Assembly: GCF_030065545.1 (NCBI RefSeq)
Contig: NZ_JASJNC010000001.1
Location: 1-64,000, forward strand
DNA from: Marinicella marina
Lineage (GTDB): Bacteria; Pseudomonadota; Gammaproteobacteria; Xanthomonadales; Marinicellaceae
DNA: 64,000 bases
Reading direction: 5' to 3'
Below the pieces are notes generated by a model that was given only the letters and a program-made list of their open reading frames with translations, ran no database searches and was not told where the DNA came from. Of this stretch, positions 45,582 to 53,541 are shown piece after piece. Position numbers and translations under genes: made by a program. Every line of letters starts with the position of its first letter. The first letter of the stretch is position 1.

Positions 45582-45863
45582 ATGAAAAAATCTATAACCT
45601 TAATTGCAATCTTCATATCAATGAGCTCTGTCTTTTATTTTAATGATTCTCAGGCACTCAACGAAGGACCCCCACCAGCTGTACGTGAGTGTATCCATTA
45701 TATTGATGGCTACCCTAATCCTTATGGTTTAATTGGACCAAATTCCAGTTGCCCTTCACCACCTCATAACGTACCACAACTATTCAAAAATGCTCAAGGC
45801 GTAATCCAACTAGACGTTCCTGGTGCACATAATTGTGAAGTCAAAGACCTACCAATGTATTGA
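45582..45863 (+). CDS. Small secreted cysteine-containing peptide, unknown
   Basis: The 93-aa product has a signal peptide (SITLIAIFISMSSVFYF ... SQA) and a mature part of about 65 residues with Cys37, Cys57 and Cys85, proline-rich (GPPPA, SCPSPPHN). No family was recognised. It sits just upstream of a strong terminator and the hybrid regulator gene, and belongs to the same neighbourhood as the other secreted Cys proteins, although it lacks their shared ATTTTGATAACTA upstream element and C-E-I ending. Confidence 0.6.
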   Translation: MKKSITLIAIFISMSSVFYFNDSQALNEGPPPAVRECIHYIDGYPNPYGLIGPNSSCPSPPHNVPQLFKNAQGVIQLDVPGAHNCEVKDLPMY

Positions 45864-45885
45864 TAAAAACTGATAACCACACGTT

Positions 45886-45920
45886 AAAAGCCAGAGCTTC
45901 GTTCAAAGCTTTGGCTTTTT
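45886..45920 (+). terminator. Terminator after the small secreted peptide gene
   Basis: A stem AAAAGCCA ... TGGCTTTT with inner pairs AGCTT/AAGCT closes over a short loop and runs into a T-rich stretch (GGCTTTTTTATT). Confidence 0.85.
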
Positions 45921-46035
45921 TATTGGATACTCTTACTTATAAGATTTTAATTAAAGCTTGAGGAAAAGGATTACTAGATAATTGAATTTCACTAATAAAA
46001 AAATTGAGTTAAACTAGATCAATCTTTTTCGCTTA

Positions 46036-49000
46036 ATGAGTATGAGATATTTAACTTGCTTCCTTATTTGTATTTCATTCAATTCACTGTCCTTAACTTA
46101 TAACTTTCAACATCTGAATGATTTTCAAGACCTGAATGATTCTCGAGTAATTGATTTTGAAGAGGATAAACATGGTTTCATCTGGCTTGCGACTAGCTCT
46201 AACTTATATCGGTACGATGGCTATGAGTACCTTAATCTAAACCAAATTTTACATACTGATCAAAAAAAAATAGAAGGTATAACTGATATCGGTTTATCCT
46301 CTGATAACCGCATATGGATTCTTACCAAGGAAAAAGGGGTTTTTGTCTATGATTATAGCACCATTCAAAAGTTACAATTAAATCGAAACGGCCTCATTGA
46401 AGATTTAACACCTTCTCACATGACATTTCACAATGACAAAGCATGGATGGCTGATTCTGATGTTTTATTTTCATTGGATGAAACAGGCCTTAACAGGTTT
46501 TCACTGCCAGAAAATACTCAGAAAAAATATCATTCAATCAAAACAATAGCGTCGGTCAGAGACAGCTTAGCTCTTGTTACATTGAATGATGTTTTTATTT
46601 TTGACACTGTAAATTCAAAATTCAAGAACATTAGTTTTGATGCTGCGACAAAACCTCTGATATGGAATGCTCATATAGATGATTTCGATAACATGTGGGT
46701 TGCCACAGATTCTGGTGTGTTTTTAATGGAATATGGCCAAAAACAATTATCTCCATTTCAACCGGGTCTGATTCCATCAATTATCGTGTCTATAGAAAGC
46801 GACCAAAGCGATATCTGGTTTGCATCAGCCACTACAGGTCTTTTTCAATACAGGAAAAAAACTGGTCAAATATATCAACATCAAAAGTCTTTAGACCAAA
46901 ACTCAATACCTGAGAATGAACTAACATCTTTGTTTAAAGATGAAATTGGACAAATTTGGATCTCAACTTTCACCGGATTACTGGCTAAGTTCAACCCCAC
47001 TTTTCCAAAACTTAAGCAAAACCTGAATTGTGATACAACGGCTGCTATTTATGAGGTTATTGAATTTGAAAACAAATTATTTATTGCTGCCGAGGATGGT
47101 ATTGCCATTGCATCTACAGATTTAAATACTTGTCATTTTATTCCAACCAAACCCACTGCTTTTGACGATGAGGGTTTTGTTCCAACATCTTTTTTTGTGG
47201 ATTCACAAGAAAACTTTTGGATTGGTAGTGAAGTTGGATTACACCAGTTGGACTATGATGGCAAAACCATAAAAAGTAACATAAAAGCAAAAGAACTATC
47301 TGGAGTCAGCACTATATTGGGGCAGGTTGATGAAGAGCATCTTCTCATAGCCAGCGGCTTTGAATTATACCTTTTCGAAATACTGACTAAAAATTTCATC
47401 GAATTAAAAATTATTTCAACCAAAGAAAATAATTTAAACAAAATCAAACATAATGGCTCGATTAAATTCAAGGACCATTTCTTTTTAGCTTCTAATCACG
47501 GTATATTAATTTTTAATACCAAATCAAAAAAATTAGTTTTAGCTGACTTAATTAACTCTCAGCTTCCCACTCAGCAAACAACAGCAATTTCATACAATAA
47601 TGACTCTATTTATATAGGAACAATGAATTATGGGTTGTTTGAACACGACACAATAAATCAGATCACTAAACAACTTATTCCTGAATCTATTTTACCTTCA
47701 GAAATAAATAATGTTGTTGCTGATAACAATGGAAACGTATGGTTATCTAGTAACATAGGGCTTATTAAGTACAACCACATTTCGCAAGCAGCCAGCTTAT
47801 TTAATGCAAATAATGGCGTTCCAAAATTCAAAGCTGTATCTAAATCAAGCTTTATCGATAGCAAACAAAACATTTATATTGGCACTAGGGATGGCTTACT
47901 TAAATTCAGTTCAAACTTATCAGAAAACTCAAACAATATTTTAAAACCTGTTTTGACACATTTAAAACGGTTCAATGAGCAAGTAAAAATTGGTCAGTCT
48001 TATGATGGGTTTGAAATTAACAAAGATATAAATTTATTGGAAAAGTTAGAGTTATCTCATTTGGACTATGTAACTAGTTTTAACTTTTCTGCTACAAGTA
48101 ACACAGACCCAGAAAACACCACGTACTCTTATCAACTTCAAGGATTTGATCCTGATTGGAACACAGTTGGTTCTGATAATCGTTTCGCTACATACACAAA
48201 TTTGCCAAGTGGTGATTATGAACTGAAGATAAGAGCTGCACATTTAGACGGGGGTTTCAGTCAAAAAATTAAAACTTTAAGTATACAAGTCCTTCCTCCG
48301 CCCTGGCTGACATGGTGGGCCATCAGTGCCTATGTATTACTGGCTTTGTTTTCAATTTATTGGTACGTACAAAGAAAAATCAAAACCAACAAAGCCATCG
48401 CTGAACAATTGCGCTTAGAAGTGGCAGAAAAAACCAAAGAACTCAACATCCAGAAACAGACAGTTGAGTCTTTGTTGGTGAAAAAGAACGAACTCTTTTC
48501 TAATGTATCACATGAGTTTCGCACGCCCCTGACATTAATTTTAGGGCCAATCAAAGAATTGATTAACAAGCAAGTAGATCAAGAGGACACCCGCAGCCTG
48601 AAGATGATCAACCGCAGCGCCAATCGACTACTTTCCTTGGTTGAGCAGTTACTACAAATCGCGCGGGTCAGCGACACAGAACAAGTCAACACCACACCCC
48701 AAAACACCCAAAATCAAGTGGCGTCACTGGTTGAGTCATTTCAGTATTTAGCTGATTCAAAACACATCAAGCTCGATTTAAAGCACAATGACCAAGCCAC
48801 CATCGATGTCACTGATCAGTTCATTGATGCAGTTTTAGGTAATCTGGTTTCTAATGCCATCAAGTACACCCAGTCTGGTGGTCACGTAGAGGTTACTTCT
48901 AAAACCACTGATGATTCATTGGTGTTGTCAGTCAGTGACAACGGCGCAGGTTTAACCGCTGAACAACAAAAGGACATTTTCAAACGTTTCAGAAGACTGG

Positions 49001-50013
49001 ATTCACACCAAGCAATCGAAGGCATCGGTATTGGTTTATCGGTGGTTGAGGAAGTGGTTAAAGTCAACAATGGCGAAATCCAAGTCAGCAGTGAGCTCGG
49101 GGTGGGTAGTGAATTTATCGTACGCATACCACTGGCTGAAGCTGTGGCTGAGATCGAATCATCACACATCAGCACTTTAATCGAACAATTACAAAATGAA
49201 TCAATAGAAGCCAAAGATGAATCGACAGTGGCAGTTAATAACGTGGAAAACAGAGACCTAAACACCGTATTAGTGATTGAAGACAATCACGACATGCGCG
49301 AACACATCGTCTCTATTGTTAGCCCATTTTACAACTGTATTACAGCTGAAAACGGTGTGAAGGGTGTTGCGACAGCAATTGAACAAGTCCCTGACATCAT
49401 CATCAGTGATGTGATGATGCCTGAAATGGATGGCTTCAAAGTGGCCAGGGTCATTCGTGCTGATCAGCGGACTTCCCACATACCACTGATGTTATTGACC
49501 GCTTTGAATGACAAAGTCAGTCGCATCAAAGGTTGGCGTGAAAATGTTGATGCTTATATGGCTAAACCATTTGATCGTGATGAATTATTGGTGCAGCTGG
49601 AGAACATGCTGACCATCAGGGATATTTTAAAAACCAAAGCAGGACAAGAAGTTAAGTCCGGTAAGTCAACATCCAAGGTATTGCCTAAAAAAGACCAAGA
49701 ATTTGTCGACCAACTGATTCAGGTGATTGAAGAAAACTACATGGATCCCATTCTGAACCGTGCCAAGATTGCCAGTAAAATGGCTGTTTCAGACCGCCAA
49801 CTTCAAAGGAAAATCAAAGCCTTAATCGACCAAAATCCGATGGACATGCTGCGAGAGTATCGCTTGAACAAATCAAAAGAATTACTCAAAGATGGCTACC
49901 AAGTTGGCATTGTTGCTGATAATTGTGGATTCAACTCTGTGTCTTATTTTTCACAGTGTTTCAAGGCACAATTCGGTATGACCGCAAAAACCTACCAACA
50001 AACTGCCAAATAA
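46036..50013 (+). CDS. Hybrid two-component system regulator (beta-propeller sensor, kinase, receiver, AraC output)
   Basis: The 1325-aa protein has a signal peptide, then a periplasmic two-component-type propeller (Reg_prop repeats such as GFIWLATSSNLYRYDG and IWISTFTGLLAKF). A Y_Y_Y domain (YSYQLQGFDPDWNTVG) and a TM helix at about 756-776 follow. Cytoplasmic part: HisKA with phospho-acceptor His in FSNVSHEFRTPLTLI (about 825), HATPase with NLVSNAIKYT and SDNGAGL, receiver with Asp in ISDVMMPEMDGF (about 1126), and a C-terminal AraC helix-turn-helix (RQLQRKIKALIDQNPM, FNSVSYFSQCFKAQFG). It should sense an extracellular ligand and regulate genes directly; the neighbouring secreted-protein genes are obvious candidates (inference). 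Confidence 0.92.
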   Translation: MSMRYLTCFLICISFNSLSLTYNFQHLNDFQDLNDSRVIDFEEDKHGFIWLATSSNLYRYDGYEYLNLNQILHTDQKKIEGITDIGLSSDNRIWILTKEKGVFVYDYSTIQKLQLNRNGLIEDLTPSHMTFHNDKAWMADSDVLFSLDETGLNRFSLPENTQKKYHSIKTIASVRDSLALVTLNDVFIFDTVNSKFKNISFDAATKPLIWNAHIDDFDNMWVATDSGVFLMEYGQKQLSPFQPGLIPSIIVSIESDQSDIWFASATTGLFQYRKKTGQIYQHQKSLDQNSIPENELTSLFKDEIGQIWISTFTGLLAKFNPTFPKLKQNLNCDTTAAIYEVIEFENKLFIAAEDGIAIASTDLNTCHFIPTKPTAFDDEGFVPTSFFVDSQENFWIGSEVGLHQLDYDGKTIKSNIKAKELSGVSTILGQVDEEHLLIASGFELYLFEILTKNFIELKIISTKENNLNKIKHNGSIKFKDHFFLASNHGILIFNTKSKKLVLADLINSQLPTQQTTAISYNNDSIYIGTMNYGLFEHDTINQITKQLIPESILPSEINNVVADNNGNVWLSSNIGLIKYNHISQAASLFNANNGVPKFKAVSKSSFIDSKQNIYIGTRDGLLKFSSNLSENSNNILKPVLTHLKRFNEQVKIGQSYDGFEINKDINLLEKLELSHLDYVTSFNFSATSNTDPENTTYSYQLQGFDPDWNTVGSDNRFATYTNLPSGDYELKIRAAHLDGGFSQKIKTLSIQVLPPPWLTWWAISAYVLLALFSIYWYVQRKIKTNKAIAEQLRLEVAEKTKELNIQKQTVESLLVKKNELFSNVSHEFRTPLTLILGPIKELINKQVDQEDTRSLKMINRSANRLLSLVEQLLQIARVSDTEQVNTTPQNTQNQVASLVESFQYLADSKHIKLDLKHNDQATIDVTDQFIDAVLGNLVSNAIKYTQSGGHVEVTSKTTDDSLVLSVSDNGAGLTAEQQKDIFKRFRRLDSHQAIEGIGIGLSVVEEVVKVNNGEIQVSSELGVGSEFIVRIPLAEAVAEIESSHISTLIEQLQNESIEAKDESTVAVNNVENRDLNTVLVIEDNHDMREHIVSIVSPFYNCITAENGVKGVATAIEQVPDIIISDVMMPEMDGFKVARVIRADQRTSHIPLMLLTALNDKVSRIKGWRENVDAYMAKPFDRDELLVQLENMLTIRDILKTKAGQEVKSGKSTSKVLPKKDQEFVDQLIQVIEENYMDPILNRAKIASKMAVSDRQLQRKIKALIDQNPMDMLREYRLNKSKELLKDGYQVGIVADNCGFNSVSYFSQCFKAQFGMTAKTYQQTAK

Positions 50014-50014
50014 A

Positions 50015-50041
50015 AAAAGCAGCCATAAAAAGGCTGCTTTT
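50015..50041. terminator. Terminator of the hybrid regulator gene (both strands)
   Basis: AAAAGCAGCC / GGCTGCTTTT forms a 10-bp stem with a 7-nt loop, with A-run before and T-run after, in the gap shared with the convergent small-peptide genes. Confidence 0.88.
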
Positions 50042-50072
50042 AAAAGACAGGTGAAACTGGAATAATTAAGGT

Positions 50073-50378
50073 TTACTGTATTTCACAATAATATACTTCA
50101 CTTCCTACTGCACCAGATCGGTGACAACCAGCTGGTATACCAGGCCCACCCATTTCCCACATTCTAGTTAACATATTACAAAGTCTAGCTGAACCAAAAC
50201 AGCTTGGTGCAGGGTAGTTAACCTCAATGGGTGGTAGTTCAATGTCGACCAGTAATTCTGACCAGTTTATACTAACTACTTTCTGTTCAAACTCAAAACT
50301 CATAGCCTCTCCGTCTAAATCAGTCGCCAAGGCGTTTAAAGATATTGTCGCCATCAATAAAATCATAATTTTTTTCAT
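50073..50378 (-). CDS. Secreted four-cysteine protein, paralogue of the next gene
   Basis: The 101-aa product has a signal peptide (MILLMATISLNALA) and a mature part with Cys60, Cys67, Cys85 and Cys98 (spacing C-x6-C-x17-C-x12-C). It ends GIPAGCHRSGAVGSEVYYCE then I-Q. The second half matches the 102-aa product encoded just upstream in the operon. Function unknown; two disulfides are likely. It is the second gene of a two-gene unit (gap 34 nt). Confidence 0.75.
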   Translation of the reverse strand: MKKIMILLMATISLNALATDLDGEAMSFEFEQKVVSINWSELLVDIELPPIEVNYPAPSCFGSARLCNMLTRMWEMGGPGIPAGCHRSGAVGSEVYYCEIQ

Positions 50379-50412
50379 ATCATTTTCCTTTTGTTTATTT
50401 TCAATAAATCGT

Positions 50413-50721
50413 TTACTTAATCTCGCAATAAACTACTTCACTACCAACGGCACCAGATCTATGACAACCTGCAGGAATATCTGTACGGCCCATCTCCCAA
50501 AGTGTCAAAACAAGATTACACAAAGGCAGATTTCCCAGACACCTTGGGGGATCAATCGGTGGATCCATTGGGTTTGGGAAAGCCAGTAATTGATTCATGT
50601 CTATGGCGTATTCGACCTGTCCAATCTCAAATTCAAATAGGTTGGCATTTTTTTCACCTTGTTCTTGAGCCATTAAGCCCAAAGACACTAGCAACATCAT
50701 AACAGTCATAATTTTTTTCAT
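50413..50721 (-). CDS. Secreted four-cysteine protein, first of a tandem pair
   Basis: The 102-aa product has a signal peptide (MTVMMLLVSLGLMAQ), and cysteines 61, 68, 86 and 99 with exactly the same spacing as its neighbour. Shared pieces include LCN, LWEMG/MWEMG, IPAGCHRSGAVGSEV, YCEI. The region between signal and first Cys is variable, as in diversifying secreted proteins. It is preceded by the ATTTTGATAACTA element 83 nt before the start. Confidence 0.75.
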   Translation of the reverse strand: MKKIMTVMMLLVSLGLMAQEQGEKNANLFEFEIGQVEYAIDMNQLLAFPNPMDPPIDPPRCLGNLPLCNLVLTLWEMGRTDIPAGCHRSGAVGSEVVYCEIK

Positions 50722-50803
50722 ATTTCGATCTCCATTAGAGGTTAATTAATAATAATTTCATGTGATTGAAATCAGTGCCTAGTTTATAAAGGTTGGTTGA
50801 AAT

Positions 50804-50822
50804 TAGTTATCAAAATTAGGAC
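50804..50822 (-). promoter_or_regulatory. Shared upstream element 1 (GTCCTAATTTTGATAACTA)
   Basis: On the minus strand, 83 nt before the start of the four-Cys gene pair. The central 15 bases (TAATTTTGATAACTA) are identical to those at 50903-50917 before the divergent gene. Likely binding site of a common regulator. Confidence 0.65.
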
Positions 50823-50902
50823 AAAAAAATCAAGTTTTTAGCCGCTACCATCTGATGAGTTTTTGTAATCAAATACTGGGATGAAAGTTAAAAAAAATGA
50901 CT

Positions 50903-50917
50903 TAATTTTGATAACTA
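50903..50917 (+). promoter_or_regulatory. Shared upstream element 2 (TAATTTTGATAACTA)
   Basis: Located 76 nt before ATG 50993. The same 15-mer lies on the opposite strand 83 nt before the divergent four-Cys genes. Both face outward from a 271-bp gap. Confidence 0.65.
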
Positions 50918-50992
50918 GTTTTTTGATAGATCAAGACAATGTTCAACATGAGTTTTTACTCATTTTTATCAATAATTAATTTTGGAGAAATC

Positions 50993-51862
50993 ATGAAGAA
51001 CATATATTTTTTATTATTAACGACCATCCTGACCGGATTTTCACTTCCTAGTTCAGCAGTCGAAAAAGATTACGGCTTTTGCTACAGTTGTACGGAATCA
51101 GACAAGCAACGTGTTGCTAGATCAAAAATAGGGTATCACAACAATAAACATGTCACTGTTGTGAACAGATACACCAGACAAGCCACAACATACAATGTTT
51201 ACAAAATAGTTGAGCCTGGCTTATTTCAAGTCTTGACATCAAGAATGAATACAAGCCAACAAGCTCAAAATTTTGTTAATGATGCATTTGAAATTATCGA
51301 TGCCATTAATTCAACTCAAGAAGGAATCCCTGTTAACCTACTTCCTGGTTCTGGATCAGCAGGCTTTCCTAATACTGTTCATGATTTGGTTGGAAACTTT
51401 AACGGACAGCAAAGGGTTTTAAGGGCTTTGCAAGATTACGTCACTTCTCAATCAGGAGTACGATTCACCACTTGGACGAATAAAGTGGCAAAATTTTTGG
51501 ATGAAAGTGGCAATCTAGATAGCAAAGAGTGGACTGTTTTTTTCAATGACAGCAGCAGTGTAACTTTTGATTTTAGCGGCACAACTCAAGATGGGACAAC
51601 AGGGTCATTCAAGATTAAAGTTAAACAGTCACCAAACTCAATGGTTGACTCAGATGGCAACACACTTCCTGATATTGGCTTGAGCGGTTTTCCAGGAAAC
51701 ACCTTTACTGTAACTGGTGGCGGTGGCGGTGGTAATATCGTTTCATGGTTGAGCATGATAAGCCGATTGAGGATTCAGGCCGATTTAGAAAATGACAGTG
51801 GAAATTTCACCCTTCACTGTTACTGGACTTCAAACAACACAGTCCAATGTGACCCACTGTAA
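50993..51862 (+). CDS. Secreted protein with CxxC and C-terminal Cys pair, unknown
   Basis: Read from ATG 50993 (RBS GGAG), 289 aa; the frame further upstream to 50939 runs through the promoter. It has a signal peptide (FLLLTTILTGFSLPSSA). The mature N-terminus has CYSC (Cys30, Cys33), and the end has two Cys (276 and 286, in LHCYWTSNNTVQCDPL). Between are beta-rich stretches (SVTFDFSGTTQDGTTGSFKI) and a glycine-rich linker VTGGGGGGN. No known family. It is part of the regulator's neighbourhood. Confidence 0.65.
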   Translation: MKNIYFLLLTTILTGFSLPSSAVEKDYGFCYSCTESDKQRVARSKIGYHNNKHVTVVNRYTRQATTYNVYKIVEPGLFQVLTSRMNTSQQAQNFVNDAFEIIDAINSTQEGIPVNLLPGSGSAGFPNTVHDLVGNFNGQQRVLRALQDYVTSQSGVRFTTWTNKVAKFLDESGNLDSKEWTVFFNDSSSVTFDFSGTTQDGTTGSFKIKVKQSPNSMVDSDGNTLPDIGLSGFPGNTFTVTGGGGGGNIVSWLSMISRLRIQADLENDSGNFTLHCYWTSNNTVQCDPL

Positions 51863-51893
51863 TATAATCTGACATATACATTAATTGTCAAGG

Positions 51894-51924
51894 CCATCAA
51901 CCCATCAGGGTTGGTGGTTTTTTT
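51894..51924 (+). terminator. Terminator after the CxxC secreted-protein gene
   Basis: CCATCAACCC / GGGTTGGTGG (one G-T pair) closes a 4-nt loop and is followed by a run of seven T. Confidence 0.9.
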
Positions 51925-52206
51925 ATTCAGGCTCTGAAGTTACTTTCCAATAAAATGAACTGATCAAGCATTTCTGTTCTCGTCAATTATTCAACCAAAC
52001 CTTTTCACAAATTGATTGAAAGCCCATGTATCTATAACTGATACATTTCACCTTTAAAAAATTTAAACACTTTCCCTCCCTGCAAGAGGGCTTCAAGACA
52101 GTATGCCTGTTTGATCAATCAAACACCTTGTCTTTATCAGCTTGTATCAATGGTGAAAGCATTCTCAAACTTAAAATATCTAGAATTGTCATTTTTTATA
52201 TTTATG
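51925..52206. other. AT-rich intergenic stretch
   Basis: No coding region is convincing here. It lies between the terminator and the shared upstream element of the next gene. Nothing else of note was seen; it may hold the promoter region of the following operon. Confidence 0.5.
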
Positions 52207-52225
52207 GTCCCTATTTTGATAACTA
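52207..52225 (+). promoter_or_regulatory. Shared upstream element 3 (GTCCCTATTTTGATAACTA)
   Basis: Located 77 nt before ATG 52302. The core ATTTTGATAACTA (13 of 13) matches the two others; with the preceding GTCC it matches element 1 at 17 of 19 positions. Confidence 0.65.
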
Positions 52226-52301
52226 AAAAAATTGAGTATCCCGATAATAGGCGACGTGTATTAATCACATTTTATTAAATCATTCAATTATGGAGAACAA
52301 C

Positions 52302-52874
52302 ATGAAAACTTTATATATGGCATTTATGATGATGCTGCCCTTAACCACTCTGGCTGAAGCGAAGCCTGATTTTAATCATCAAATGACGGATACTGGTTTT
52401 GATATTCAGTGGCAACAAACTGGTGACACGCTTTATTTTTCACAAAGCTACAAAGATCAATTCTCAGGTCAACAAATGGTCATCACAAAACGCATCGATA
52501 CAGTTACGAAAAATCAGAACAATCAAATGGAAGTGTCCATCTTTTCAGACAATGGTTTCATGGTTTTTAAGCCCACTCAACTTGTAGATGAAATGCTGAA
52601 TGACAAGTCAACAGGTGAAAAATCTGAAGAATTACAATTATTCCTGTCTGTGGTTCACAGCCAAATGGTTGCAGATGTCAATCGTCAGCTTACTGAAGAA
52701 GTTTCAGTCAGTTTAAAAAGGGGCGCATGTTCTGCAGCAACTTCTTATGTCGCTTTTACTTGGAATCAATTCATGCAAGCAGTTATTGCCGGGAACAATG
52801 GTGCAGCTAATTATTGGATGTTTGAAAACCAATGGGCTATTTCAGAAATGCGAATCTTTTGCGAAATACGTTAA
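52302..52874 (+). CDS. Secreted protein, C-x43-C family, first of tandem pair
   Basis: Read from ATG 52302 with RBS GGAG, 190 aa. It has a signal peptide (LYMAFMMMLPLTTLAEA) and a middle domain of beta strands, then LKRGACSAATSYVAF (LKRG at 138-141, Cys143) and an ending FCEIR with Cys187. The two Cys are 43 residues apart, as in the next gene. Alanine/glycine-rich helices lie between. Function unknown; the sequence after LKRG may be a released peptide (inference). Confidence 0.75.
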   Translation: MKTLYMAFMMMLPLTTLAEAKPDFNHQMTDTGFDIQWQQTGDTLYFSQSYKDQFSGQQMVITKRIDTVTKNQNNQMEVSIFSDNGFMVFKPTQLVDEMLNDKSTGEKSEELQLFLSVVHSQMVADVNRQLTEEVSVSLKRGACSAATSYVAFTWNQFMQAVIAGNNGAANYWMFENQWAISEMRIFCEIR

Positions 52875-52904
52875 TACTACTTAATAAATAAAAAGGAAAA
52901 TAAA

Positions 52905-53495
52905 ATGAATATATTCAAAACACTAATCACCATCACTCTATTTGGAGTGATGTTCCAAGTGGCTGCCAAAAAGCCTACTGAACTGAATCAAGTCGCTGAA
53001 AACCGTTATGAACAAAAACAATTAAACCTGAAGGACTCGACAGTTGTAAACCACAGTTTTGTCGATGCTGAATCAGGTGAATTCTTGAACATAAGCAGTC
53101 GTACCAGCTTTGCAAGTCAAAAGAAAGGCGAAAATAACACTGAATTTCATATCAGCAGTAATCGCGGATCATTGATTATCAACCAACAAGGCATAACCAT
53201 TCAGATGGACGGTCACATTGAATTGATTCAACACCATGAGAAATCACTTAAAAAGATAACTTCCCAGGCTGTATTGAATCATGATCTGTTATTGCAAATG
53301 CAAGAGGAAATCGAACAGCAGGCACTTGGATTGAAACGAGGATCTTCGTGCGATGCTGCAACAACCGGCGCTGCACATGCCGTCGGCATGTATGCACGCG
53401 CATTATTCTCCGGTGATTGGGACGGTGCAAACTTTTGGTACAGTGTTTATCAAGGGCATGTTTACAACATGCGTACTTTCTGTGAAATTCAATAA
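52905..53495 (+). CDS. Secreted protein, C-x43-C family, second of tandem pair
   Basis: The 196-aa protein has a signal peptide (TLITITLFGVMFQVAA), a beta-rich middle and LKRGSSCDAATTGAAH (LKRG 143-146, Cys149), ending FCEIQ with Cys193. C-x43-C spacing is identical to the upstream paralogue. Segments shared are LKRG, GA-NFW/NYW, E/NMR and FCEI. It lies 30 nt after the first gene with RBS AAAGGAAAAT, so both are one operon, closed by a hairpin at 53512. Confidence 0.75.
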   Translation: MNIFKTLITITLFGVMFQVAAKKPTELNQVAENRYEQKQLNLKDSTVVNHSFVDAESGEFLNISSRTSFASQKKGENNTEFHISSNRGSLIINQQGITIQMDGHIELIQHHEKSLKKITSQAVLNHDLLLQMQEEIEQQALGLKRGSSCDAATTGAAHAVGMYARALFSGDWDGANFWYSVYQGHVYNMRTFCEIQ

Positions 53496-53511
53496 GAAAA
53501 TGATATTGTTA

Positions 53512-53541
53512 TCACAAGCCACTCTATACGGTGGCTTGTGA
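53512..53541 (+). terminator. Hairpin ending the C-x43-C operon
   Basis: TCACAAGCCAC / GTGGCTTGTGA forms an 11-bp stem with an 8-nt loop. It lacks a T-run, so it may act as an mRNA-stabilising end or weak terminator. Confidence 0.6.

What the first reader, a model, noticed from the sequence alone, without database searches (positions are those of the whole stretch)
45582..53541. A hybrid two-component regulator next to a cluster of secreted cysteine proteins with shared upstream elements: candidate new system
The 1325-aa HTCS-type regulator lies beside five small to mid-size secreted Cys-containing proteins: a 3-Cys peptide, two 4-Cys paralogues, a CxxC protein, and two C-x43-C paralogues. 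None resembles a family I know. Three transcription units carry the same ATTTTGATAACTA core at 76-83 nt before the start codons. HTCS proteins usually control polysaccharide utilisation genes, but here there are none. The picture fits a secreted-peptide system under one regulator, possibly competition, signalling or surface interaction (inference).
Basis: partly seen in the sequence, partly recalled or inferred. Interest (0 to 1): 0.85.

Follow-up and report, generated by a model that had tools for sequence, protein, structure and literature searches.

The report
Peptide-paired sensor controlling secreted cysteine proteins
A marine bacterium carries a membrane sensor-regulator that travels with a small secreted three-cysteine peptide and appears to switch on a changing set of secreted cysteine-rich proteins, a layout reminiscent of the peptide-signal systems that control antibacterial peptides in other bacteria.

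Summary
ATTTTGATAACTA occurs exactly three times in the 3.46-Mb genome (very probably a Marinicella species), each 75-82 nt before the start of a secreted-Cys transcription unit here. A 29-nt matrix from these sites and two in a second species found strong sites before secreted 6-Cys genes in two further species and weak candidates before two lanthipeptide-synthetase genes and a small Cys gene. In 7 of 9 sites a -10-like hexamer lies exactly 21 nt downstream.

The 3-Cys peptide is a steady partner of this regulator subfamily: it precedes 13 of 14 assessable genes in the genus, and the 7 non-seed profile hits in the family all lie 5' of such a gene. In nine comparisons among six species the sensor is 24-30% identical, the kinase 66-86%; a related propeller kinase gives 44-61%.

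Most likely: a peptide-paired HTCS activating exchangeable secreted Cys effectors at a gain/loss site. The regulon is well supported by comparison; peptide sensing and antibacterial function are inference. The peptide gene lacks the motif, so autoinduction is unsupported. The CxxC protein belongs to a family found in 35 of 398 genomes of the order.

The parts
45582..45863 (+). secreted 3-Cys peptide, 93 aa (C-x-H ... C ... H-N-C ... P)
   Evidence: family alignment; 25 of 26 members carry C-x(1,2)-H and 25 of 26 have exactly three Cys after residue 20
45886..45919 (+). terminator-like hairpin with T-rich 3' arm between the peptide gene and the regulator gene
   Evidence: fold -18.8 kcal/mol, z -5.4; not listed by the consensus scan
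46036..50013 (+). HTCS: periplasmic propeller sensor, Y_Y_Y, HisKA, HATPase_c, receiver, AraC-type HTH
50073..50378 (-). secreted 4-Cys protein, 101 aa (second gene behind the 4-Cys promoter)
50413..50721 (-). secreted 4-Cys protein, 102 aa (first gene behind the 4-Cys promoter)
   Evidence: homologue in G004, E 6e-26 with a profile of the two
50804..50832 (-). 29-nt promoter element of the 4-Cys genes (core ATTTTGATAACTA at 50804-50816)
50889..50917 (+). 29-nt promoter element of the CxxC gene (core at 50905-50917)
50993..51862 (+). secreted CxxC protein, 289 aa from the corrected start (CxxC near the N-terminus, C-x9-C near the C-terminus)
   Evidence: family in 35 of 398 genomes of the order
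51890..51921 (+). terminator-like hairpin after the CxxC gene
52197..52225 (+). 29-nt promoter element of the C-x43-C genes (core at 52213-52225)
   Evidence: best 29-nt match to the G004 4-Cys promoter is 25 of 29; 700 random windows gave at most 23
52302..52874 (+). secreted C-x43-C protein, 190 aa from the corrected start
52905..53495 (+). secreted C-x43-C protein, 196 aa
   Evidence: a distant, low-identity (17-18% to the first) tandem pair lies beside another HTCS in L040

Best explanation
This is a peptide-paired hybrid two-component system. (1) The HTCS protein, when active, binds a 29-nt element that covers the -35 region of its target promoters (TTGATA, 21-nt spacer, -10-like hexamer) and activates secreted-Cys genes next to it: well supported by comparison, not shown by experiment. 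(2) The small secreted 3-Cys peptide encoded just 5' of the HTCS, apparently as its own transcription unit in this genome, is the dedicated partner of the sensor, acting in the periplasm or outside as ligand or modulator: inferred from steady linkage and from the strong divergence of the sensor relative to kinase and DNA-binding domains. (3) The outputs (4-Cys, CxxC, C-x43-C, 6-Cys proteins, perhaps lanthipeptides in two loci) are exported and exchangeable; their most likely use is interference competition or self/non-self interaction with close relatives: inferred. It works like the inducing-peptide/kinase/regulator arrangement of bacteriocin loci, with kinase and regulator fused and a propeller as the receptor, but autoinduction of the peptide is not supported.
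For: Regulon: exact 13-mer 3 times in the genome, all here. A matrix built only from this genome and G004 scores 38.6 before the 6-Cys gene beside the G006 HTCS (above all five training sites) and 24.4 before a 6-Cys gene of G016 (there on another contig than the HTCS); in 218 other loci (1,465,155 bases) 3 hits reach 15 and the best is 19.2. Weak candidates: 19.5 before the G006 lanthipeptide dehydratase, 17.3 before a 104-codon Cys gene in G003, 17.2 before the class II lanthipeptide synthetase of L043. A 19-nt pattern, drawn up after the G006 site was known, with up to 2 mismatches gave 29 hits in 18 genomes (19 for the reversed control); the four with 0-1 mismatch are the three here and the G006 site. 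At exactly 21 nt after the -35-like part a hexamer matches TATAAT at 4-5 of 6 places in 7 of 9 sites; about 5% of places do so by chance. 8 of 9 sites end 75-94 nt before the ATG, the ninth 144. Pairing: of 17 HTCS matches in the genus 3 are cut by contig ends; 13 of the other 14, the window's own included, have the peptide directly 5'. The peptide profile hit 25 places in 12 of 33 genomes; 18 are seeds, the 7 others all lie 5' of an HTCS. Diversification: in nine pairs among six species sensor 24-30%, kinase 66-86%; control propeller kinase, 8 comparisons, sensor 44-61%, kinase 66-78%; flanking genes 69-82%. Output: small secreted Cys ORFs within 2.5 kb of the block 16 of 53, further away 11 of 102, P 0.004. 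Gain/loss: of 16 RND loci, the module follows RND in 4 and rmuC follows directly in 6. Lanthipeptide-type genes sit beside the module in G006 and beside a second copy in G017.
Against: No motif was found before the 3-Cys gene (best 4 mismatches in both species), so positive feedback of a signal is not visible. The peptide/sensor distance correlation depends on one close pair (L083/L084) and vanishes without it (partial r 0.07, P 0.28). Three further HTCS pairs are less extreme or opposite: L041/L044 sensor 43, kinase 67; L042/L043 36 and 53; L083/L084 87 and 79. 10 of 20 paired loci have no small secreted Cys ORF within 2.5 kb by my crude caller. The matrix finds no site above 12.3 in L033 (G016 contig with the HTCS), L034 (G017) or L036 (G007); in the other paired loci the hits of 15-21 (L035, L039, L043, L045, L046) are mostly inside or behind genes and look like chance, which weakens the three weak candidates. 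The link of motif to HTCS is by position only. No immunity gene, outer-membrane exporter or known toxin domain was recognised, but only part of the neighbours was scanned. AlphaFold models were too poor to use (mean pLDDT 56 and 44).
Confidence: 0.52

Rival explanations
1. The 3-Cys peptide is a periplasmic accessory regulator (repressor, redox or metal-responsive adaptor) of the HTCS, in the manner of CpxP with CpxA; the system is an envelope-surveillance response and the Cys proteins are periplasmic or surface protectants rather than weapons.
For: Steady adjacency to one sensor; C-x(1,2)-H in 25 of 26, a His within nine residues before the third Cys in 23 of 26, exactly three Cys in 25 of 26, which would suit a metal site or one free thiol; no motif before the peptide gene.
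Against: A generic stress sensor should not fall to 24-30% in the sensor while its kinase stays at 66-86%; output genes change from species to species and lanthipeptide-type genes sit at the same place.
Confidence: 0.22
2. The HTCS senses an external ligand (glycan or prey/competitor wall fragment) like Bacteroides HTCS; the 3-Cys peptide is only one more secreted product that stays linked for other reasons.
For: Architecture matches carbohydrate-sensing HTCS, with solved relatives 4a2l and 3v9f; Bacteroides HTCS regulate adjacent genes (PMC3404733, passages). HTCS sensors may diverge with their ligands.
Against: No carbohydrate genes recognised at the locus; peptide next to 13 of 14 assessable HTCS of this subfamily and, among the 25 profile hits in 33 genomes, none away from an HTCS. 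Of 80 named HTCS loci only M. sediminis and one MAG match the peptide profile at E below 0.001; 12 of the 80 have under 700 nt of upstream sequence.
Confidence: 0.2
3. The motif is the site of another factor or an ordinary promoter feature, and the HTCS neighbourhood is coincidence.
For: TTGATA plus a -10-like hexamer resembles a promoter; no binding data; no strong site beside several paired HTCS.
Against: Exactly three genome-wide copies of the 13-mer, all at the locus; the strong sites in other species belong to genomes whose HTCS has an 81-88% identical HTH; 21-nt spacing is not that of an ordinary sigma-70 promoter (16-18 nt, recalled).
Confidence: 0.06

Closest known systems
Hybrid two-component systems (HTCS) of Bacteroides, e.g. 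BT1754, BT0366, BT4663
   Same: Same domain order and AraC-type HTH; regulate neighbouring genes (PMC3404733, passages) through motifs near promoters (PMC3878776, passages).
   Different: No polysaccharide genes recognised; dedicated secreted peptide gene; likely targets are secreted Cys proteins; the tandem-repeat motif with on average 21 bp between sites reported for Bacteroides is only weakly visible here (7 of 9 matches 21 nt upstream in 2 of 5 sites, 4-5 of 9 at best in the others).
Inducing-peptide/histidine kinase/response regulator systems of bacteriocin loci (nisin, plantaricin, gallocin types) and ComC/ComD-type pherotypes
   Same: Peptide gene beside kinase, variable receptor and peptide with conserved kinase, secreted peptide outputs, exchangeable effector genes. 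(Papers seen only in search listings; details recalled.)
   Different: Kinase and regulator are one protein; receptor is a periplasmic propeller; Sec-like instead of double-glycine leader; no visible autoinduction; Gram-negative host; longer peptide.
CpxP/CpxA-type periplasmic accessory regulators
   Same: Small periplasmic protein encoded beside its sensor kinase (search listing only; details recalled).
   Different: No family match of the 3-Cys peptide; hypervariable pair; likely outputs are secreted Cys proteins.

Membership tests
HTCS (hybrid two-component system) | Periplasmic Reg_prop/Y_Y_Y sensor, HisKA, HATPase_c, receiver and AraC-type HTH in one chain | tested here: met
HTCS (hybrid two-component system) | Regulates adjacent genes through a shared promoter motif | tested here: inconclusive
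   Motif shared and found in further species, absent beside several paired HTCS; binding not testable here
HTCS (hybrid two-component system) | Direct-repeat motif, on average 21 bp between sites (PMC3878776, passages) | tested here: inconclusive
   Second half-site 7 of 9 at 21 nt upstream in 2 of 5 sites, 4-5 of 9 at best spacing in the others
HTCS controlling a polysaccharide utilisation locus | susC/susD or carbohydrate enzymes beside the regulator | tested here: not met
   Neighbours are RND pair, secreted Cys proteins and rmuC by inspection; only seven proteins of the window were scanned with Pfam
Bacteriocin-type peptide pheromone system | Peptide gene linked to the sensor kinase | tested here: met
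   13 of 14 assessable HTCS matches; 7 of 7 non-seed profile hits
Bacteriocin-type peptide pheromone system | Peptide gene carries the regulated promoter (autoinduction) | tested here: not met
   Best motif match 4 mismatches before the peptide gene in both species examined
Bacteriocin-type peptide pheromone system | Multi-pass membrane receptor kinase and double-glycine leader on the peptide | tested here: not met
   Propeller sensor; Sec-like N-terminus on the peptide by inspection
Bacteriocin-type peptide pheromone system | Outputs kill relatives | not testable with these tools
   needs expression and killing assays
CpxP-type periplasmic regulator | Recognisable family domain | tested here: not met
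   No Pfam or NCBIfam match for the window's 3-Cys peptide at E up to 1

The most novel reading that the evidence does not exclude
A Gram-negative pherotype system: each lineage has its own secreted 3-Cys peptide read by a matching propeller-type HTCS receptor, which switches on lineage-specific secreted Cys-rich or lanthipeptide weapons from a gain/loss site between two conserved genes. To my knowledge it would be the first case in which an HTCS propeller reads a self-made peptide instead of a sugar.
Probability: 0.33. Interest if true: 0.9.

Novelty: new variant of a known kind. Interest (0 to 1): 0.72.

Why it matters
HTCS are known mainly as sugar sensors of Bacteroidota. A subfamily tied to a tiny secreted peptide, with a sensor that in most comparisons diverges far more than its kinase, suggests that the same receptor architecture has been turned to peptide sensing. 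It also gives a handle on several uncharacterised secreted Cys-protein families and perhaps on the control of lanthipeptide-type genes in marine Gammaproteobacteria, and it allows direct tests: one motif, three promoters, one peptide, one receptor.

Tried and rejected
Family libraries gave no match with E below 0.03 for the six small proteins of the window. Profile searches of solved structures: none up to E 1 for the 3-Cys and C-x43-C families; for the CxxC family 12 weak matches, the best (E 0.002) to a short stretch of a surface-protein repeat, not relied on. AlphaFold on the 3-Cys peptide (4 sequences) and on the C-x43-C pair (2 sequences) gave poor models, so no fold search was made. Peptide/sensor co-evolution by distance correlation: r 0.67 with all 18 loci, but it rests on one near-identical pair (0.17 and partial 0.07 without L084), so it is not claimed; L082 was left out of that test, L081 lacks a full HTCS, L089 has no 3-Cys peptide, and where two peptides exist the one nearest the HTCS was used. 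The 11-mer ATTTTGATAAC alone is too common to be useful. The first random control of the 29-nt promoter match drew on sequence that included the true region (maximum 25); it was repeated without that region. A plasmid search with one 4-Cys protein found nothing. The gene caller used for one search misses the two 4-Cys genes of the window, so its counts are rough. L039:4207-4593 was given with a wrong end and corrected; searches used the corrected alignment. Paper searches that bear on novelty: Marinicella with two-component (6 listed), HTCS with Gammaproteobacteria (1 listed, on xylan), propeller regulator with secreted peptide (none), Reg_prop/Y_Y_Y with bacteriocin and hybrid kinase (1 listed); judged by titles and abstract starts only, none describes this pairing, and the library is only part of the literature. 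G016 carries the HTCS (C15) and the RND and 6-Cys genes (C47) on two contigs; that they belong together is an inference and the contigs were not joined.
Full report
Observation. The regulator has the full HTCS domain order and its best solved relatives by sequence are HTCS pieces: receiver plus HTH of 12aw and the sensor ends of 4a2l and 3v9f. The six secreted Cys proteins have no family assignment. The motif ATTTTGATAACTA occurs three times in the window and three times in the whole 3.46-Mb genome, all at this locus; the reversed control occurs 0 times. With the start codons that have good ribosome-binding sites it ends 75, 76 and 82 nt before the three first genes.

Where it is.

A second species. 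In G004 the same order is found between the same flanking genes: RND pair, 3-Cys peptide, HTCS, 4-Cys protein divergent from a CxxC protein, another small Cys protein, rmuC. The CxxC promoter there carries ATTTTGATAACCG 82 nt before the start (2 mismatches) and the 4-Cys promoter ATATTAATAACTC 84 nt before it (3 mismatches); random 150-nt pieces have a match with 3 mismatches in 4%. The 4-Cys promoter of G004 and the C-x43-C promoter of the window, which drive unrelated genes, match best over 29 nt at 25 places; 700 random windows gave at most 23.

Test of the motif in other species. A matrix from these five sites was used on other HTCS loci. It scored 38.6 before a secreted 6-Cys gene beside the HTCS of G006, above all five training sites, and 24.4 before a secreted 6-Cys gene of G016, which lies on another contig than that genome's HTCS. 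In 218 other loci (1,465,155 bases, some of them picked for holding the 11-mer) 3 hits reached 15, the best 19.2, so these two sites are strong. Scores of 19.5 before the lanthipeptide dehydratase gene of G006, 17.3 before a 104-codon Cys gene in G003 and 17.2 before the class II lanthipeptide synthetase gene in L043 are only candidates: other paired loci show hits of the same size that lie inside or behind genes (L035 15.1, L039 16.3, L045 20.7, L046 16.8), and the HTCS loci L033, L034 and L036 give nothing above 12.3. Over 18 genomes a 19-nt pattern, drawn up with the G006 site known, gave 29 hits with up to two mismatches against 19 for the reversed pattern; the four with 0-1 mismatch are the three here and the G006 site. 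The pattern misses the G004 and G016 sites. The hexamer 21 nt after the TTGATA-like part, which is not in the matrix, matches TATAAT at 4-5 of 6 places in 7 of 9 sites (in the window's 4-Cys promoter a better hexamer lies at 19 nt); about 5% of places do so by chance. I noticed the spacing on the first four sites; of the five looked at later 3 fit. This places the element over the -35 region, as expected for an activator that replaces a -35 box.

The 3-Cys peptide is the steady partner. Of 17 matches to the HTCS at E 1e-200 or better in 9 of 18 genomes, 3 are cut by contig ends; 13 of the other 14, the window's own included, have one or two small secreted 3-Cys genes directly 5' on the same strand, L037 has none. 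A profile of 18 peptides searched in 33 genomes of the family gave 25 hits in 12 genomes of two genera; 18 are seeds. The 7 others, three of them weak (E 8e-5 to 0.004), all lie 5' of an HTCS: one is the outer member of a tandem pair, one faces only the first 178 codons of a propeller protein at a contig edge. Among 80 named HTCS loci only M. sediminis and a MAG (NORP309, E 2e-4; seven Cys) match at E below 0.001; 12 of the 80 have under 700 nt upstream. In Pleionea sediminis an 18-Cys secreted protein occupies the same place. The 26 peptides share little but three Cys (25 of 26), C-x(1,2)-H (25 of 26) and a His near the third Cys (23 of 26). In the window a strong terminator-like hairpin separates peptide and regulator genes, so the peptide is probably its own transcription unit. 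The four other Y_Y_Y proteins of this genome (one hybrid kinase, three GGDEF proteins) have no such peptide.

Hypervariable sensor. Between the window and G004, G016, G017, G006, G007 the sensor is 25-30% identical, the kinase 69-86%, the HTH 78-88%; four further pairs among these species give sensor 24-28%, kinase 66-78%. G016 is the extreme: sensor 26, kinase 86, HTH 88, RND gene 94. The control, a propeller hybrid kinase with orthologues in 17 of 18 genomes, has sensor 44-61% and kinase 66-78% in 8 comparisons. Three pairs of other HTCS of the subfamily are less extreme or opposite: sensor 36/kinase 53, 43/67 and 87/79. A direct co-variation of peptide and sensor could not be shown.

A gain/loss site. 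What follows the RND gene was read in 16 loci: the module in G000, G004, G007 and G017; rmuC directly in G001, G002, G003, G011, G012 and G013 (45-79% identical to the window's rmuC); a 6-Cys gene then a contig end in G016; C39-type transporter genes in G006 and G009; other genes in G010 and G015; no flank in G005. In G006 the interval to rmuC holds a class I lanthipeptide-type gene set (dehydratase, leader-like precursor by eye, HlyD, C39-peptidase ABC transporter; no cyclase recognised), then peptide, HTCS and 6-Cys gene. In G009 a C39 ABC transporter and a partial reading frame lie beside RND. In G017 a second peptide-HTCS copy lies beside a class II set (synthetase with LANC_like domain, short precursor by eye, C39 ABC transporter).

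Interpretation. Shown by comparison: one promoter element, in this genome restricted to this locus, before secreted-Cys genes in four species; a nearly inseparable peptide-HTCS pair; a hypervariable sensor; exchangeable neighbours at a gain/loss site. Inferred: HTCS binds the element; peptide acts on the sensor; outputs serve competition. The lack of the element before the peptide gene speaks against simple autoinduction. The CxxC protein is a member of a widespread unnamed family (35 of 398 genomes, 20 of 98 genera of the order; many hits are partial and weak), recruited here into the regulon.

Comparison with the known. In Bacteroides, HTCS motifs are direct repeats with on average 21 bp between sites (PMC3878776, passages) and 28 of 32 HTCS genes of B. 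thetaiotaomicron lie beside polysaccharide loci (PMC3404733, passages). Here the architecture is the same and the neighbourhood is not. The arrangement resembles inducing-peptide systems of bacteriocin loci but lacks three of their features: motif before the peptide gene, separate kinase with multi-pass receptor, double-glycine leader. It is therefore filed as a new variant of HTCS.

Noticed in passing
L035:8933-9199, L244:4764-5051, L046:2496-2795, L081:1352-1618, L085:4547-4897: A secreted 6-Cys family with a symmetrical pattern C-x3(4)-C-x6-C ... C-x6-C-x3-C recurs beside the peptide-HTCS pairs (in L244 the HTCS is on another contig); no Pfam match for the L244 member.
   Followed up: partly
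window:50993-51862 and loci L167-L196: The CxxC protein belongs to an unnamed family of about 300-aa secreted proteins (CxxC near the N-terminus, FPDGS-like stretch, C-terminal Cys pair) spread over the order.
   Followed up: partly
L261:720-7817 and L263:4761-9500: Lanthipeptide-type gene sets (class I dehydratase in G006, class II synthetase in G017) directly beside peptide-HTCS pairs.
   Followed up: partly
L089:376-1224: In Pleionea sediminis an 18-Cys secreted 282-aa protein lies directly 5' of a distant HTCS.
   Followed up: no
window:31829-34249: Three consecutive minus-strand reading frames read, by eye, like pieces of an outer-membrane-type protein; possibly one gene in several frames.
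   Followed up: no
window:5322-5427: A perfect tandem duplication of 52 bp.
   Followed up: no
L037:6839-8107 and L036:371-1749: Two HTCS loci share a neighbouring pair of secreted Cys-free proteins (111-128 aa and 261-276 aa) instead of Cys proteins.
   Followed up: no
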